From positions 2,852,001 through 2,916,000 of the forward strand of contig NZ_JBEPOC010000001.1 of the NCBI RefSeq assembly GCF_040546585.1: DNA of 64,000 bases, written 5' to 3'. Every line of letters begins with the position of its first letter. The stretch's first letter is position 1. Shown one piece after another: positions 5,502 through 57,128 of this stretch. Below the pieces are notes generated by a model. It was not told where the DNA came from and made no database searches. It was given only the letters and a program-made list of their open reading frames with translations. The position numbers and the translations under genes were made by a program. Origin of the DNA: Marmoricola sp. OAE513 (GTDB lineage: Bacteria > Actinomycetota > Actinomycetes > Propionibacteriales > Nocardioidaceae).

Positions 5502-6509
5502 TCAGACGGCGACCGGCTCGCGCCGGTAGTGCCCGACGAGCTCGTCCACCGCGTCGGACCAGGTCCGACCGGTCACCGAGTCCCGGGCGTTCGCGGCCAG
5601 GCGGTCGCGCAGCGCCGGGTCGGCGACCAGGCGTGCGACGGCGCCGGCCAGCCCGCCGGACCCGGGCCGCACCAGCAGTCCGGTGCTCTCGTGGGTGATC
5701 ACCTCGGCGGCAACGCCGGTCGCGTAGGCGACCACCGGGACGCCGCTGGCCAGGGCCTTGCGCACGGCGCTGAGGTTGCGGTCCTGCTTGCGCGGTTGCA
5801 CCAGCACGTCGAGGGACGCGATGGCGCGGGCCTGCTCCAGTCCGTTGGTCGGGCCGACGATCTTGGCGCCGGCCTCCTTCAGGGTCACAGTGCCCGGGCC
5901 GGAGCCGAGCACGACCAGCCGGACGCCGTCGAGCGCCGCGACCTTGGCCAGGCGGCGCACGGACTTCGACGTCGGCAGACCGACCGGACCGACGTACCCG
6001 ACAACAGTCAGCGGGCCTTCGGGCTTGCCGATCTTGGCCCAGCGGTCGTGCAGTTCCGCGGAGCGCAGTCCCGGGTGGTGCTCGTCGGTCCGCACCCCCG
6101 GCCGACAGACCCGGGCGCGCACCCCGGCGGTCGCGAGCACGCGGGCGTAGGCGTCGCTGCTCGCGAGCACGGTACCCAGGCGCGGGTGCAGGGGAGTGGG
6201 GTCGAGGACGACCATGGGGACGCCGGCGGACTCCAACGCCCGCATCGCGGCCCCGCCCATCGCGCGCGGCGCGAGGAACTGGGCGACGTCCGGGGCGAAG
6301 TCGAGCGAGACCCGCCGGATGGTGGCGGCGGAGAAGAGGGTGCGGGTCCGGTGCACCCGGGCTCCGCGGTAGCTGTCGCTGCCAGGACCGGTCGTGACGA
6401 CCACGACCTCGTGCTCGGCGCCGATCAGGGCGTCGGCGATGTGGCGCGCTGCGTCCGCGGCCGGATCGGTGGCCGGGGCGAACGACTCGGTGACCAGGAG
6501 GATCCTCAT
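5502..6509 (-). CDS. Glycosyltransferase family 4-type protein
   Basis: The 335-residue product starts MRILLVTESFAPATDPAAD, the usual N-terminal strand and glycine-poor loop of GT-B enzymes. It carries the linker VVGYVGPVGLPTSKSV, a nucleotide-sugar-side segment LVVLGSGPG, and the C-terminal GVPVVAYATGVAAEVI plus ESTGLLV motifs of the GT4 donor site. It should transfer a sugar from a nucleotide sugar in the cytoplasm; the acceptor is unknown. The ATG at 6509 was preferred because it starts the conserved MRILLV strand, although a TTG at 6533 is in frame. It faces mutA divergently across 142 nt and converges on the membrane protein gene. Confidence 0.82.
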   Translation of the reverse strand: MRILLVTESFAPATDPAADAARHIADALIGAEHEVVVVTTGPGSDSYRGARVHRTRTLFSAATIRRVSLDFAPDVAQFLAPRAMGGAAMRALESAGVPMVVLDPTPLHPRLGTVLASSDAYARVLATAGVRARVCRPGVRTDEHHPGLRSAELHDRWAKIGKPEGPLTVVGYVGPVGLPTSKSVRRLAKVAALDGVRLVVLGSGPGTVTLKEAGAKIVGPTNGLEQARAIASLDVLVQPRKQDRNLSAVRKALASGVPVVAYATGVAAEVITHESTGLLVRPGSGGLAGAVARLVADPALRDRLAANARDSVTGRTWSDAVDELVGHYRREPVAV

Positions 6510-21174: not shown

Positions 21175-21627
21175 CTACGACAGCAGCAGGACGACGCTCT
21201 CCGCGACGCACGCGGGCTTGTCGGCGTTCTCGATCTCCACGACGTACTTCATCGTCAGCTGGTAGCCGGCCGGGATCTCGGTGACCTCGCCGATCGACAC
21301 GTGCGCGCGCACCCGCGAGCCCACCGGCACGGGGCTCGGGAAGCGGACCTTGTTCACGCCGTAGTTCAGCTTGGCGCCCGGCGTCTCGAGCGTCATCACC
21401 TGGTCGGTCAGACCGGGAACCAGGGACAGCGTGAGGTACCCGTGTGCGATCGTGCCCCCGAACGGACCCTCCTTGGCGCGCTCGACGTCGACGTGGATCC
21501 ACTGGTGGTCACCGGTCGCCTCGGCGAAGGTGTCGACCCGCTCCTGGGTGATCTCCAGCCAGTCGGAGGTGCCGATCTCCTCGCCGGCTGCCTTGATGAC
21601 CTCGTCGAAGGTGGTGAACGTGCGCAT
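21175..21627 (-). CDS. MaoC-family dehydratase
   Basis: The 150-residue single hot-dog-fold protein carries the catalytic Asp and His of the hydratase-2 motif in [10 protein letters not shown], followed by [15 protein letters not shown]. Such proteins hydrate enoyl-CoA to (R)-3-hydroxyacyl-CoA or dehydrate it; the substrate here is unknown. The ATG at 21627 was chosen because the homologous region begins [10 protein letters not shown]. Only 37 nt separate it from the divergent adenosine deaminase start, leaving little room for leaders. Confidence 0.85.
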
Positions 21628-21664
21628 GAGGGACTCTTTCGGTGCGAAGTGCTTGGATGGCCGT

Positions 21665-22732
21665 ATGGGAGAACTTACTAGGGAGACCGTCCGTCGAGCA
21701 CCCAAGGTCTTGCTCCATGATCACCTCGACGGCGGCCTGCGACCGGCGACGATCGTCGAGCTCGCCGGTGAGATCGGCCACGAGCTGCCGGCCCCCGACG
21801 CCGCTTCCCTGGAGAAGTGGTTCGTCGACGCCGCCGACTCGGGATCGCTCGAGCGCTACCTGGAGACGTTCATCCACACCGTCGCGGTGATGCAGACCGC
21901 GGACAACCTCACCCGCGTCGCCCGGGAGTGCGTCGAGGACCTCGCCGCCGACGGTGTCGTGTACGCCGAGATCCGCTACGCCCCCGAGCAGCACCTCGAC
22001 AACGGGCTGACGCTCGAGGAGGTGGTCAACGCCGTGCAGGCGGGCTTCGAGCAGGGAGAGGCGTCCACCGGGATCGTCGTCCGTCAGCTGCTGACGGCGA
22101 TGCGGCACCAGGCCAACTCGCGGCAGATCGCCGAGCTGGCGGTCGCGCACCGGGACAACGGGGTCGTCGGCTTCGACATCGCGGGCGCCGAGGCGGGCTA
22201 CCCGCCGACCCGGCACCTCGACGCGTTCGAGTACCTGCAGCGCGAGAACGCGCACTTCACGATCCACGCCGGCGAGGGCTTCGGCCTGCCGTCGATCTGG
22301 GAGGCGATCCAGTGGTGCGGTGCCGACCGGCTCGGCCACGGCGTGCGGATCGTCGACGACATCACCCTGGACGCTGCGGGCAACGCCTCCCTGGGCCGGT
22401 TGGCGGCGTACGTCCGGGACAAGCGGATCCCGCTCGAGCTCTGCCCGCACTCCAACATCCAGACCGGCGCGGCCGCCTCGATCGCGGAGCACCCGATCGG
22501 GCTGCTCGCCAAGCTTCGCTTCCGGGTCACGGTGAACACCGACAACCGACTGATGAGCGGAACCTCGATGACCACCGAGATGGCTGCCCTGGTCGACGCC
22601 TTCGACTGGGGGCTCGACGACCTGCAGTGGGTGACCGTGAACGCGATGAAGTCGGCGTTCCTCGGGTTCGAGCAGCGGCTGAAGATCATCAACGAGGTCA
22701 TCAAGCCCGGGTACGCGTCGCTCCGCGCCTGA
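21665..22732 (+). CDS. add: Adenosine deaminase
   Basis: The 355-residue protein has the ADA metal and catalytic motifs in order: LLHDHLDGG (two metal histidines), TIHAGEGFG (His and catalytic Glu), RLGHGVRI and [12 protein letters not shown] (metal Asp). It converts adenosine and deoxyadenosine to inosine forms, which purine nucleoside phosphorylase (46652-47446) can split. The ATG at 21665 has a TTGGAT hexamer 6 nt upstream and no ribosome site, so it may be leaderless. The stop codon is followed immediately by the 32-bp repeat array. Confidence 0.93.
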
Positions 22733-23063
22733 CGCCGAGAGGTCTGGGATGTCCCGCCGGCACACGCCGAGAGGTCTGGGATGTCCCGCCGGCACACGCC
22801 GAGAGGTCTGGGATGTCCCGCCGGCACACGCCGAGAGGTCTGGGATGTCCCGCCTCGGCGCGCCGAGAGGTCTGGGATGTCTCACCCCGGTGCGCCGACC
22901 GGGCTCAGATGTCACGCGTTGGTGCTCTGACCTGACTGCATGCGCGAACATCCGCGCCCTCTCGGCGTGGTTCGGCGGGACATCTGCGCCCGCTCGGCGC
23001 CCTAGGGTGGGACATGTGGGCCCGCTCGGCGCACCGGGGCGGGACATCTGGGCCCGGTCAGCG
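22733..23063 (+). repeat. 32-bp repeat array filling a convergent intergenic space: six direct units, 11-bp centre, four inverted units
   Basis: Direct units start at 22733, 22765, 22797, 22829, 22861 and 22893 (the last degenerate). After 11 bp (22925-22935), inverted units end at 22967, 22999, 23031 and 23063. Every unit is 32 bp. In the direct sense a unit starts CGCCGAGAGGTCTGGGATGT and goes on CCCGCCGGCACA; inverted units share CGCCGAGCGGGC and GATGTCCC. There are no unique spacers, so it is not a CRISPR. The array begins the base after the add stop codon and ends the base before the DUF2236 stop codon (TAG, 23066-23064). Long-range pairing of direct and inverted halves would give a large hairpin on either strand, compatible with a bidirectional terminator. 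Confidence 0.9.
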
Positions 23064-24003
23064 CTACATGGGGCGGAGGTCGATCACCTTCCGCAGCCGC
23101 GCGGTGTTGCGGGTGTGGTCACGCTCCAACCGGCGGGCCTCGTAGGCGATCGGGAGGTAGCGCAGCCGCTCGGGCAGCAGCGGCACCACCCGGGCGACGA
23201 CCTTCCCGAGCAGGCGGAGCTGGCGCTCCTGACTCGTGGTCCAGGGTGAGGCCGAGCTTGTCGCGCGCCACCTGCGGCACGGTGCCGACGGTCGCGAGGT
23301 ACTGCACGTAACCGAGCGGGTTGGTGAGCAGCCGCCAGACGGGCTTGAGCAGCGCCGGCGTCCCCAGCGGCGGGCCGGGGTGCCGGATGCCGGCCAGGAA
23401 GTCCTGGGAGACCTGGTTGTTCTCCAGCTGCTCGGCGATCTTCTGCTCGAAGAACGGCACGAAGTCGGCGTACGTCGGTGGGATCTCCTTCTCCGCCACC
23501 TTGAAGCCGCGCATCAGCTGCTTCATCTCCTCGTACATCCCGTCGACGTCGAGGTCGGTTCCGTCGCCGAAGTACTTCGCGCCCTCGGTGTAGGCGTGCA
23601 CTCCCGTCAGCAGCACCCAGGCCCACGGACCCGACGACAGCGCCGTGTGCCGGACGCCGTTCTCGTCGGTGACGTTGAGGGTCGCGTGCATCTCGCGGAG
23701 ACGCTCGACCTCGACCAGCGACTCCTCGTCGCCGTAGACCCACATCATCACCGAGGCGAGGCTGCGCAGGCCGCGCCCGATCGGGTCGGTGCGGAAGGTC
23801 GAGTGCGCATCGACGACAGCGCCGATCGAGGGCTCCATCGTCTGCAGCAGGAACGCGCTGCCTGTGGTCAGCGAGAAGGTCACCAGTCCGGTGCTCTCCC
23901 ACAGGATGCCGCCGGGCTCGGCGCAGCGCCGTACGTCGGGCGTCGCCTCCGCTGATCGAGCCTGGCGAGATCCGGCGCGCTGGTCGGGGAGGGTGCTGGT
24001 CAT
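23064..24003 (-). CDS. DUF2236 (MpaB/Lcp-like) oxygenase-family protein, with an apparent frameshift near the C-terminus
   Basis: The product matches the DUF2236 family of heme oxygenase-like proteins, with GRGLRSLASVMMWVYGD and the histidine-bearing REMHATLN and GVHAYTEGAK regions. The open frame from ATG 24003 ends at 23119 in an unrelated proline/alanine tail. Dropping one base of the CC at 23228-23229 gives ERQLRLLGKVVARVVPLLPE and an ending KVIDLRPM at 23064, a normal family C-terminus of about 312 residues in total. That corrected stop abuts the repeat array exactly, which supports it. The N-terminus includes a dispersed-repeat segment. The ATG overlaps the stop of the TetR gene (ATGA), so the pair is an operon. 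Confidence 0.8.
23951..23973 (-). repeat. Dispersed short repeat in the DUF2236 N-terminus
   Basis: On the minus strand, GGATCTCGCCAGGCTCGATC followed by AGC is a diverged member of the repeat at 8481, 10754 and 29715. It encodes part of AGSRQARSAE, a low-complexity N-terminal tail. Confidence 0.4.
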
Positions 24004-54521: not shown

Positions 54522-55157
54522 GTGTTCTGCGGTCGTCTAGTGGCGCCAGAGATCAGGCGCAGCAGGCCGGTCCAGGCGCGGTCGAAAGCCATGGTCGAGC
54601 GGATCCTGGACGCCGCTACTCGCGTTCTCGCGACCGGTGGGTACGTACAGATGAGCACCAACCGGGTGGCGGACGAGGCGGACGTCAGCATCGGTTCGCT
54701 GTACCGCTACTTCCGGGACAAGGACGAGATCATCGCCGAGCTCCAGCAGCGGGCCTCGACCGGGATCGTCGAGGAGATCACCGCGGCGATGGCCGATGCC
54801 GCACCGATGGACGCGTACGCCGGCACCCGGCACGTGGTCGCGACGATCGTCGCCTCGCTGCGAGCACGCGGGCCGTTGATCAGCGCGATGATCAACGAGG
54901 TGCCGCTCGGGTCGCACTCCAACGCGCTGCCCGAGGTCGAGCGCAACCTGGGCGCCTTCGTCCGGATGTACGCCGTCCAGCGGGCACCGAGGATGCCGCG
55001 CGAGGAGCTCGACGCGCGCGTCTACCTCGCGATGGGCATCACGCTGAGCAGCTGCCTGCGCATCGCGCTGGAGAAGCCGGAGCACCTCGACGCCGAGCAC
55101 CTGATCGACCTCACCGCCGGGATGCTCGCGCTGGGCCTCACCGCCCACCCGGCTTGA
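54522..55157 (+). CDS. TetR-family transcriptional regulator
   Basis: The 211-residue protein has a clear TetR HTH (QARSKAMVERILDAATRVLA and MSTNRVADEADVSIGSLYRY, residues about 20-70) and a C-terminal ligand domain of TetR_C type. It is divergent from the DUF5995/DUF2236 operon and should control it. The GTG at 54522 was taken; a GTG at 54540 is an alternative that removes six residues. The stop is followed at once by the second repeat array. Confidence 0.87.
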   Translation: MFCGRLVAPEIRRSRPVQARSKAMVERILDAATRVLATGGYVQMSTNRVADEADVSIGSLYRYFRDKDEIIAELQQRASTGIVEEITAAMADAAPMDAYAGTRHVVATIVASLRARGPLISAMINEVPLGSHSNALPEVERNLGAFVRMYAVQRAPRMPREELDARVYLAMGITLSSCLRIALEKPEHLDAEHLIDLTAGMLALGLTAHPA

Positions 55158-55322
55158 ATGTGCACCAAAACAACGCCGACCCGGCAGAGATGTGCTCCAA
55201 AACACCGCTGACCCGGCAGAGATGTGCAGATGTTGGTGCACATTCCTGCCGGGTCAGCGCACTTACGTGCACATTCCTGCCGGGTCAGCGCACATTACGT
55301 GCACATTCCTGCCGGGTCGGGG
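55158..55322 (+). repeat. 32-bp-period repeat array filling a convergent intergenic space: direct then inverted copies
   Basis: Two direct 32-bp units (55158-55189 and 55190-55221) start ATGTGCACCAAAACAACGCC and ATGTGCTCCAAAACACCGCT and end GACCCGGCAGAG. A third partial unit follows. Inverted units, starting CCTGCCGGGTCAGCGCAC, then follow with 31 and 32 bp periods and a final partial copy. The array starts the base after the TetR stop and ends the base before the accA3 stop codon. Rotated to CGCTGACCCGGCAGAGATGT, the unit matches unit CGCTGACCGGGCCCAGATGT of the array at 22733 at 17 of 20 positions, so both belong to one family. Confidence 0.85.
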
Positions 55323-57128
55323 CTACTCGGCGTCCTTGATCTCGCAGAGCACCTCGCCGTTGCCGACGGTCGCGCCGACCTCGGCGGTCAGGCCGGTGAT
55401 CGTGCCGGCCTTGTGCGCCTTGAGGGGCTGCTCCATCTTCATGGCCTCGAGCACGACGACGACGTCACCCTCGGCGACAGTGGCGCCGTCCTCGACGGCG
55501 ACCTTCACGATGGTGCCCTGCATCGGGCTGGTCACCGAGTCGCCCGACGCCGCAGCGCCGGCCTTCTTGCCGCCTGCGCGCTTCGGCTTCTTCGCGCCGC
55601 CACCGGCGGGTGCGGAGCCGATGCCGCCGAGACCGGCAGGCAGGACGACCTCGAGACGGCGACCGCCGACCTCGACGGTGACCTTCTGGCGCTCGCCAGC
55701 CTCCCCACCATCGCCAGCCTCGCCGCCCTTGTTCACGTAGGGAACGATCTTGTTGTCGAAGTCCGTCTCGATCCACGTCGTGTAGACGTCGAAGGAGCCC
55801 TCGCCCGACGGGTTGGACGCGGCCACCCAGGCCGGGTCGCGGGTGATGACCTCGTGGAAGGTGATCGCGGTCGGCATGCCGTCGACGACGAACTCGCTCA
55901 GCGCGCGGCGCGAGCGCTCGATCGCCTGGGTGCGGTCCTTTCCGGACACGATCAGCTTGGCGACCAGGGAGTCGAACGCGCCCGGAACGGTCTCGCCGAC
56001 CTCGTAGCCACCGTCGAGACGCACGCCCGGGCCGGACGGCGGGTTCCACGCGGTCAGGGTGCCGGGGGCGGGCATGAAGTTGTTGCCACCGTCCTCGGCG
56101 TTGATCCGGTACTCGATCGAGTGCCCGATGATGGCCGGGTCGTCGTAACCGAGCTCCTCGCCCGCGGCGATGCGGAACATCTCGCGGACCAGGTCGATCC
56201 CGGTGACCTCCTCGGAGACGCAGTGCTCCACCTGGAGCCGGGTGTTGACCTCGAGGAAGGAGATGGTGCCGTCGGCGGCCACGAGGAACTCGCAGGTCCC
56301 GGCCCCGACGTACTTCGCCTCGCGCAGGATCGCCTTGGAGGACTCGTACAGCCGGGCGACCTGGTCGTCGGTCAGGAACGGCGCGGGGGCCTCCTCGACC
56401 AGCTTCTGGTGGCGGCGCTGCAGCGAGCAGTCGCGCGTGGAGACGACCACGACGTTGCCGTGCTGGTCGGCGAGGCACTGGGTCTCGACGTGGCGCGGCT
56501 TGTCGAGGAACTTCTCGACCAGGCACTCGCCACGGCCGAAGGCGCTGACCGCCTCGCGGTACGCCGACTCGTACAGCTCGGGGATCTCCTCGAGCGTGCG
56601 GGCGACCTTGAGGCCGCGACCGCCGCCACCGAAGACCGCCTTGATGGCGACCGGGAGACCGTGCTCCTTGGCGAACTCGACGATCTCGTCGGCGTCCTTG
56701 ACGGCGTCCTTGAGGCCCGGCGCGAGCGGCGCGCCCGCGGCCAGAGCGATCTGCTTGGCCTTGGCCTTGTCGCCGAGGCCCTCGATCGCGGCAGGGGACG
56801 GGCCGATCCAGATCAGGCCGGCGTCGAGGACGGCCTGGGCGAACTCGGCGTTCTCGGCGAGGAAGCCGTAGCCGGGGTGCACCGAGTCGGCTCCCGACTC
56901 CTTGGCCGCCGCGATGATCTTGTCGATGACCAGGTAGGAGTCACCGGGCGTGGACCCGTTCAGCGAGTACGCCTCGTCGGCCAGGCGCACGAACAGCGCG
57001 TCCCGGTCGGGCTCGGCGTACACGGCGACGCTGCCGATCCCGGCGTCCTTGCACGCGCGGATCACGCGTACGGCGATCTCGCCTCGGTTGGCGATGAGGA
57101 CCTTCTGCAACGGACGGATCTCGGGCAC
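55323..57128 (-). CDS. accA3: Acyl-CoA carboxylase alpha subunit (biotin carboxylase plus biotin carrier)
   Basis: The 601-residue protein has an N-terminal biotin carboxylase ([64 protein letters not shown]) and a C-terminal biotin carrier with the biotinylated Lys in EAMKMEQP (near residue 571). A Lys/Gly/Ala-rich linker separates them. It carboxylates biotin with bicarbonate and ATP and supplies AccD-type partners, one of which is at the right edge. The GTG at 57128 is backed by AGGAG at 57135-57139; the TTG two codons earlier is less well spaced. A TAGACT (-10-like) lies at 57168-57163. Confidence 0.94.

What the first reader, a model, noticed from the sequence alone, without database searches (positions are those of the whole stretch)
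22733..23063. Stop-to-stop 32-bp repeat array with inverted halves between convergent genes
Six direct 32-bp units and four inverted units, with an 11-bp centre, fill the whole 331 bp between add and the DUF2236 gene, starting and ending exactly at the stop codons. There are no spacers, so it is not a CRISPR. Each strand would transcribe a region able to fold back on itself over more than 100 nt. Such a precise fit to a convergent gap suggests that arrays grow to fill, or define, the 3' ends of both genes, perhaps as bidirectional terminators, transcription insulators or nucleoid-protein sites. I know of no described family with this architecture.
Basis: seen in the sequence. Interest (0 to 1): 0.82.

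Follow-up and report, generated by a model that had tools for sequence, protein, structure and literature searches.

The report
Nuclease-linked repeat arrays at gene ends
The odd 331-base repeat block between two genes is one of about 38 scattered copies of a repeat that also surrounds a gene for a probable DNA-cutting enzyme elsewhere in the same genome, and related bacteria carry the same kind of gene wrapped in their own private repeats, which looks like an undescribed kind of self-spreading DNA.

Summary
The array is real: 6 direct and 4 inverted 32-bp units plus an 11-bp centre fill the 331 bp between two stop codons. It is one of 38 arrays of two subtypes, A and B, found in this genome; all 33 with both orientations run direct units first, then inverted ones. 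Each subtype also brackets one gene for an AbiEi-like helix-turn-helix joined to a PD-(D/E)XK-type (MTES_1575/DUF559) nuclease. In 60 of 71 homologous loci of the family the gene is bracketed by inverted repeats, against 12 of 796 mismatched flank pairs. Repeat types are private: 12 of 12 testable same-genome pairs differ, and two units read from a nuclease flank were found dispersed in that genome (21 and 75 copies) and in 0 of 7 and 0 of 9 comparison genomes. Tandem periods cluster near 2, 3 and 4 DNA turns. No Y1/RAYT transposase was found in 9 genomes. Best reading: REPIN-RAYT-like non-autonomous arrays with a cognate nuclease, lodged at gene 3' ends. The association is shown; mobilisation by the nuclease and any termination are inferred.

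The parts
21371..22732 (+). ORF containing add (adenosine deaminase); stop TGA at 22730-22732 abuts the array
22733..22764 (+). direct unit 1 (32 bp, subtype A)
22765..22796 (+). direct unit 2
22797..22828 (+). direct unit 3
22829..22860 (+). direct unit 4
22861..22892 (+). direct unit 5
22893..22924 (+). direct unit 6 (core differs from units 1-5)
22925..22935 (.). 11-bp centre between the direct and inverted halves
   Evidence: coordinates
22936..22967 (-). inverted unit 1
22968..22999 (-). inverted unit 2
23000..23031 (-). inverted unit 3
23032..23063 (-). inverted unit 4 (outermost; begins CGCTGA, abuts the stop codon of the minus-strand gene)
23064..24003 (-). DUF2236-type gene, 3' end at 23064 (TAG 23064-23066); its 5' part reads in another frame (ORF 23119-24003)
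55142..55322 (.). second array of the window, subtype B: cores + 55142, 55174, 55206 and - 55240, 55271, 55303; stop TGA 55155-55157 of the left gene lies inside the first unit, right-hand gene ends at 55323

Best explanation
The array is a non-autonomous copy of a repeat family whose source locus is a single nuclease gene bracketed by the same repeats. SHOWN: (1) subtype A and subtype B units of this genome each bracket one gene for an AbiEi-like winged-helix plus PD-(D/E)XK-type nuclease, as '-> array, gene, <- array'; (2) the same layout, with units that differ between genes and species, recurs across the family; (3) in the two cases tested, units are dispersed only in the genome that has the matching gene; (4) most array sites compared differ between sister species while the A-type gene locus stays put; (5) arrays sit next to stop codons; (6) unit spacing clusters near 2, 3 or 4 DNA turns. 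INFERRED: the nuclease binds its own units side by side on one face of double-stranded DNA through its helix-turn-helix; it cuts or nicks DNA, and repair or replication from a hairpin or donor array copies units into new gene-end sites, where insertions are tolerated or preferred; tandem slippage then lengthens each half. Between convergent genes the inverted halves would also give both transcripts a long hairpin, so arrays may serve secondarily as bidirectional 3'-end elements.
For: Genes bracketed by A and by B in this genome. Inverted-repeat score >=20 in 27 of 31 loci and 33 of 40 more = 60 of 71; controls: 12 of 796 cross-locus pairs from non-homologous neighbourhoods (max 27.5) and direct orientation 4 of 31 and 4 of 40, 0 of 45 window genes. 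12 of 12 same-genome pairs in which both paralogues pass have different repeats (22 pairs examined). Units read from the nuclease flank alone, then searched: 21 copies in G062 (7 at the gene), 0 in 7 other genomes; 75 in G033 (8 at the gene), 0 in 9 others. Protein identity and repeat similarity correlate weakly (Spearman 0.15; 0 of 500 permutations). Nuclease gene between two gene 3' ends in 57 of 69 loci, never in a divergent gap. Periods 21-22 (13), 31-33 (68), 42-44 (8) of 96 periodic flanks, none inside the genes. 2 of 15 array stretches of the sister genome have an array at the same place in G000, one being the nuclease locus. Array-free add/DUF2236 gap in 5 of 5 relatives that keep the adjacent pair, the sister genome included. 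Candidate catalytic residues invariant in 30 of 30.
Against: No transposition, binding, cleavage or transcription was observed. 11 of 71 loci fail the flank test. Other genes of the nuclease loci also lie between two 3' ends fairly often (46 of 119). One distant paralogue (L119) reaches a borderline flank score of 20.5 without known arrays; L118 does not (11.0). No target-site duplication was identified. Inner units of the two halves are not better matched than chance in subtype A (p = 0.16 and 0.15), only in B (p = 0.0002), so exact hairpins are not strictly maintained. 5 of 38 arrays have one orientation only. In G033 stop-codon contact is weaker: 5 of 14 3' ends within 10 bp, 0 of 8 5' ends. 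The nuclease assignment rests on weak Pfam hits and conserved residues; the single-sequence structure model failed (pLDDT 31) and PDB profile hits are weak (E 0.45-0.7). G196, with a mild excess of the core, has a nuclease with a different repeat.
Confidence: 0.66

Rival explanations
1. The arrays are host-serving bidirectional terminators or 3'-end protectors; the nuclease gene is bracketed only because it sits in such a site.
For: 44 of 54 flanking 3' ends and 0 of 22 5' ends within 10 bp; strong folding; at L107 the array stands where the sister genome has a 14-bp-stem hairpin between the same genes.
Against: Does not explain why 60 of 71 nuclease genes are bracketed by inverted repeats while 0 of 45 window genes are, why types differ within a genome (12 of 12), or why sites differ between sister species. 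18 tandem and 2 divergent arrays; whole-turn spacing points to a double-stranded DNA-binding protein.
Confidence: 0.15
2. The arrays are resident binding platforms (operators, self-marks or bait) for a regulatory or defensive AbiEi-type nuclease and are spread by selection for that role, not as mobile DNA.
For: AbiEi-like N-terminus (Pfam AbiEi_4 in 24 of 30; PADLOC AbiEi models in 4 of 4); whole-turn spacing.
Against: Array sites differ between sister species, insertion exactly into a 0-21 bp gap, gene-end rather than promoter location (0 of 22 5' ends abutting).
Confidence: 0.13
3. The repeats spread by replication slippage, template switching and gene conversion alone; the nuclease gene is a passenger.
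For: Halves look locally homogenised (identical neighbouring units); quasi-palindromic centres in some arrays.
Against: One gene, one repeat type and two of two predictions from gene flank to dispersed copies borne out.
Confidence: 0.05
4. It is a REPIN-RAYT (REPtron) system driven by a Y1 tyrosine transposase.
For: Dispersed inverted-repeat elements with one dedicated gene per type, as described for REPINs (PMC3116915, passages).
Against: PF01797 found in 0 of 9 genomes including this one, while 5 of 14 control genomes ring.
Confidence: 0.01

Closest known systems
REPIN-RAYT / REPtron (PMC3116915 and PMC3733652, passages read)
   Same: Non-autonomous inverted-repeat elements dispersed between genes; one single-copy cognate gene per repeat type, itself beside or flanked by the repeats; several types per genome; co-diversification.
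   Different: Partner is an AbiEi-wHTH plus PD-(D/E)XK-type nuclease; no Y1 transposase found in the genome; units form tandem arrays spaced near 2-4 helical turns; no GTAG in the window's units; units abut stop codons.
CGTC-tagged REPs (PMC3733652, passages)
   Same: Dispersed palindromic repeats without a Y1 partner.
   Different: Described there as lacking a dedicated transposase; here a dedicated gene is identified. The window's units start CGCYGA.
TIRtrons (RAYT-like genes flanked by terminal inverted repeats; PMC3733652, passages)
   Same: Gene flanked by inverted repeats, some of which also form dispersed families.
   Different: Enzyme class again HUH/Y1.
Vsr-like homing endonucleases such as I-Bth0305I (recalled; weak PDB profile hit 3r3p 'Mobile intron protein', E 0.7)
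   Same: Small PD-(D/E)XK/Vsr-like nuclease as the gene of a mobile element (recalled).
   Different: Intron-borne single insertion, no repeat arrays (recalled); relationship not established here.
AbiE type IV toxin-antitoxin (AbiEi)
   Same: Similar N-terminal winged helix.
   Different: A nuclease-type domain follows in the same protein; AbiEii was not looked for.

Membership tests
REPIN-RAYT | Y1 (HUH) REP-associated tyrosine transposase in the genome | tested here: not met
   PF01797: 0 of 9 genomes at E <= 0.001, 5 of 14 controls ring
REPIN-RAYT | Repeats occur as inverted pairs dispersed between genes | tested here: met
   33 of 38 arrays have both orientations, all direct-then-inverted; 5 have one only
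REPIN-RAYT | One single-copy gene per repeat type, flanked by that type | tested here: met
   but the gene is a nuclease-type gene, not a RAYT
REPIN-RAYT | GTAG tetranucleotide at one end of the repeat | tested here: not met
   No GTAG in the unit sequences of the two window arrays
CRISPR array | Direct repeats separated by unique spacers, with cas genes | tested here: not met
   No unique spacers, inverted halves; cas genes not searched
Intrinsic terminator | Stable G+C-rich hairpin followed by a U tract | tested here: inconclusive
   Very stable fold; no T run seen in the array; termination not measurable here
Known Rfam RNA | Match above gathering score | tested here: not met
   Window 22000-24000: only microRNA models far below gathering
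MTES_1575 / DUF559 PD-(D/E)XK nucleases | Profile match and conserved E...D...E-Y-x-G...H residues | tested here: met
   MTES_1575 in 27 of 30 at E<=0.01 (the three proteins score below its gathering cut-off); invariant E210, D242, E253, Y254, G256, H260; activity untested
AbiEi | AbiEi winged-helix profile | tested here: met
   AbiEi_4 in 24 of 30 at E<=0.01; the L086 protein just above gathering, the L042 protein just below
Insertion sequence or MITE | Terminal inverted repeats with target-site duplication | tested here: inconclusive
   Inverted arrays present; no clear target duplication at the empty sites examined

The most novel reading that the evidence does not exclude
A previously undescribed class of intragenomic mobile DNA, widespread in this family of Actinobacteria and probably present in others: a solitary AbiEi-HTH plus PD-(D/E)XK nuclease that recognises its own private tandem units, spaced in whole DNA turns, and homes them into the seams between genes, one nuclease per repeat type, without any transposase.
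Probability: 0.5. Interest if true: 0.92.

Novelty: categorically new. Interest (0 to 1): 0.84.

Why it matters
REPIN-RAYT is the known example of bacterial non-autonomous palindromes with a captive enzyme; CGTC-type palindromes were described as lacking a dedicated transposase (PMC3733652, passages). Here the enzyme class is different, which would make 'one enzyme, one private repeat population' a convergent way of life rather than a quirk of one transposase family. It gives a poorly studied actinobacterial protein family (homologue in 140 of 197 genomes of this family at E <= 1e-30) a concrete DNA partner and a testable specificity code. It also explains unusual gene-end repeats that could set the 3' ends of many transcripts.

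Tried and rejected
CRISPR: no unique spacers. Rfam: nothing above gathering. Frequent inversion of the nuclease gene: one search seemed to show it, but those loci were not gene-oriented; redone, the opposite relative orientation remains for L138 and L144 against nine others at one home site (one search adds L221 to the minority and L241 to the majority), and for L137 and L145 against L128, L134 and L135 at another. So orientation has changed in evolution; frequent switching is not shown. One search read add 3' ends in locus orientation and is valid only for loci on the plus strand; redid all with strand taken into account. Strict hairpin matching of the two halves: supported only for subtype B. 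Structure prediction from a single sequence was useless and no fold search was run; the other homologues came from sources the tool's description does not name, so no alignment-based job was sent. Viral contigs: no relative. Replacement of longer ancestral gaps: array-free convergent gaps already have median 14 bp (n = 27), so simple insertion suffices. The first cross-locus control was contaminated by homologous neighbourhoods and was replaced. by construction kept only arrays with the direct half first, so the order of halves is counted instead. Literature: searches listed no paper linking DUF559, MTES_1575 or AbiEi nucleases to flanking repeats; only open-licence PubMed Central papers are held, no preprints, and the listed papers were not read except passages of two.

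Full report
1. The observation. The 331 bp from 22733 to 23063 hold six direct and four inverted 32-bp units and an 11-bp centre. The add ORF ends with TGA at 22730-22732; on the other strand a TAG lies at 23064-23066. The pattern is far beyond chance (14 matches, 3.34 expected, 0 of 100 shuffles; 147 matches in the genome, 0 for the reversed control).

2. It is one of a genome-wide family. Two exact patterns give 96 + 45 = 141 matches, at least two of them chance hits in coding sequence (in L094 and L099); the arrays also hold inexact units. I fetched 40 stretches around the hits: three (L113-L115) held no array. With the two window arrays this gave 39 clusters; one (L099, a '-+' overlap inside a coding region) was dropped, leaving 38 arrays. 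Arrays made only of inexact units would be missed. There are two subtypes: A (core like CGCCGAGCGGGCnnAGATGT followed by CCCGC) and B (core like CGCYGACCCGGCAnnRATGT followed by GC-rich GCAC-like sequence). By the orientation strings, 33 of 38 arrays have both orientations and in all 33 the direct units come first; 5 (L087, L089, L091, L093, L100) have one orientation.

3. Where they sit. 18 arrays are between convergent genes, 18 between tandem genes, 2 between divergent genes (L099 excluded); array-free neighbours in the same stretches are 16 convergent, 93 tandem and 22 divergent. Counting, 44 of 54 flanking gene 3' ends lie within 10 bp of a unit (often at 0, or with the stop codon inside the unit's CGCTGA), but 0 of 22 flanking 5' ends. 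Gene calls come from my own codon-usage script and may err; the right end of the array of the finding is counted as a miss for this reason. In G033 the picture is weaker: 11 clusters (two of them halves of one array, one at the nuclease gene) gave 5 convergent, 4 tandem and 2 divergent, with 5 of 14 3' ends and 0 of 8 5' ends within 10 bp.

4. Empty sites. All 24 genus genomes have add. With strand taken into account, 6 of the other genomes have a DUF2236-like gene facing it within the locus. In L151 another gene lies between. In the other five the two stops are 0 (L154, L160), 8 (L152), about 9 (L153) and about 21 bp (L158, the sister genome G081) apart, without an array (the last two read by eye). 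So the 331-bp array was added between two stop codons in the G000 lineage. At L107 a subtype-B array separates two tandem genes whose orthologues in the sister genome (L034) are 24 bp apart by my gene calls, with a 14-bp-stem hairpin at 6006-6037 there. Of 15 sister-genome stretches caught by an exact tandem pattern (not all its arrays), 3 share a neighbourhood with a G000 array stretch and 2 have the array at the same place: the nuclease locus and a divergent pair. That these stretches belong to G081 follows from identical loci.

5. The gene. Three stretches have an ORF of about 0.8-0.95 kb between the direct and the inverted half: L086 (A), L104 (B) and L042 in the sister genome (A). They encode related proteins with an AbiEi-type N-terminus and an MTES_1575/DUF559 nuclease-like C-terminus, with invariant E210, D242, E253, Y254, G256, H260, D268, R271 over 30 homologues. 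PDB profile hits are weak: PvuRts1I (E 0.45, 0.47) and a mobile intron protein (3r3p, E 0.7). In G000 five homologues reach E 1e-3; the two best are bracketed by arrays. Of the three distant ones, L118 has no flanking repeat (11.0), L119 a borderline score (20.5), L120 none in a test with flanks set from a partial match. A fourth stretch (L092) has a YqeY-like gene between halves.

6. The layout is general. Homologues at E <= 1e-30 occur in 140 of 197 genomes and 23 of 26 genera of the family. I compared 500 bp upstream with the reverse complement of 500 bp downstream of the gene. Best loci (one per genome, plus L117): 27 of 31 score >= 20; cross pairs from non-homologous neighbourhoods 12 of 796 (max 27.5, so scores of 20-27 are weak singly); direct orientation 4 of 31. 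A further 40 loci (7 chosen because their genomes mattered here, 33 next in the hit list) gave 33 of 40, direct 4 of 40. Together 60 of 71; misses are L125, L130, L141, L145, L218, L224, L228, L233, L234, L244, L253. Window genes: 0 of 45 (700-bp flanks). Beyond the family, 12 of 396 phylum genomes, G000 included, have homologues at E <= 1e-40 (five candidates scored per genome). Of 27 loci from these other genomes 8 score >= 20, but direct matches are as frequent (11 of 27; counted, leaving out L208, which is from G000), so that extension is suggestive only.

7. One gene, one repeat. In 12 of 12 same-genome pairs in which both paralogues pass, the repeats differ (22 pairs examined; in one pair below threshold, G055, the two loci share a repeat). 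The unit read from the L146 flank has 21 copies in its genome, 7 at the gene and 14 elsewhere, and none in 6 same-genus genomes and G000. The unit from L248 has 75 copies in its genome, 8 at the gene, and none in 9 others. These were the only two such tests. The repeats bracketing genes of G004, G058 and G111 resemble the dispersed units listed for those genomes; in G196 they do not (its listing was cut off). Across 2060 of 2485 pairs with unrelated neighbourhoods, protein identity and repeat similarity correlate weakly (Spearman 0.15, 0 of 500 permutations). The unit head (CGCYGA, then a G+C-rich stretch) is usually shared, the tail differs (read by eye).

8. Spacing. 96 of 142 flanks have a tandem period: 21-22 bp in 13, 31-33 in 68, 34 in 2, 42-44 in 8, and 26, 29, 52, 63 and 75 once each; no periodic stretch inside the genes. 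The loci share ancestry, so these are not independent counts. Clusters near 2, 3 and 4 turns of B-DNA are what a protein bound on one face of the double helix would select (inference). This points to DNA rather than RNA as the working form, although the RNA would fold strongly.

9. Home sites. The gene lies between two gene 3' ends in 57 of 69 loci and never in a divergent gap; for comparison 12 of 57 window genes and 46 of 119 other interior genes of the same loci lie so. Eleven genomes of two genera share one home site, with the gene in the opposite orientation in L138 and L144; L221 and L241 are at that site too, one in each orientation. Its flanking genes look like rbpA and a 6-phosphogluconolactonase gene (names recalled). 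A second site also shows both orientations. At the A locus the nuclease is 63% identical between sister species while neighbours are 78-92% identical, so the gene is inherited in place and evolves fast.

10. Reading. Dispersed inverted repeats, one captive single-copy enzyme per type, several types per genome and joint change are marks of REPIN-RAYT (PMC3116915, passages). But no Y1 transposase was found in any of 9 genomes, and the enzyme here is a predicted nuclease. I therefore call it REPIN-RAYT-like in behaviour but not a member. That the nuclease moves the arrays is inference; so is any effect on transcription. Papers: only passages of PMC3116915 and PMC3733652 were read; the rest were search listings.

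11. Changes made on checking. 

Noticed in passing
window 23064-24003, minus strand: The DUF2236-type gene seems frameshifted: its C-terminal part ends at 23064 in one frame, the long ORF (23119-24003) is in another; sequencing error or decay not resolved.
   Followed up: partly
L092 2418-3153: Seven direct and four inverted subtype-A units lie on either side of a YqeY-like gene instead of a nuclease gene.
   Followed up: partly
L102 2476-2550: A subtype-B pair of identical units encloses a 35-bp near-perfect palindrome that looks like an older terminator hairpin.
   Followed up: no
L103 and L037: An array conserved between the two sister species lies between divergent genes, next to a similar AGTGGAAC...GTTCTA element; the array may affect promoters there.
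   Followed up: no
L188, L191, L200, L205, L211: Related nuclease genes of other actinobacterial families are also flanked by inverted, partly tandem repeats of unrelated sequence.
   Followed up: partly
L074, L049 (G111): In G111, 22-bp units form one-way arrays running away from the stop codon, without inverted partners found nearby.
   Followed up: no
L141 and L234 (G055): Two paralogous nuclease loci share a repeat with each other (25.5) though neither shows a strong inverted pair of its own.
   Followed up: no
L119 (G000 603 kb): A distant nuclease paralogue has a borderline inverted repeat in its flanks (20.5); it may be a third, nearly single-copy type.
   Followed up: no
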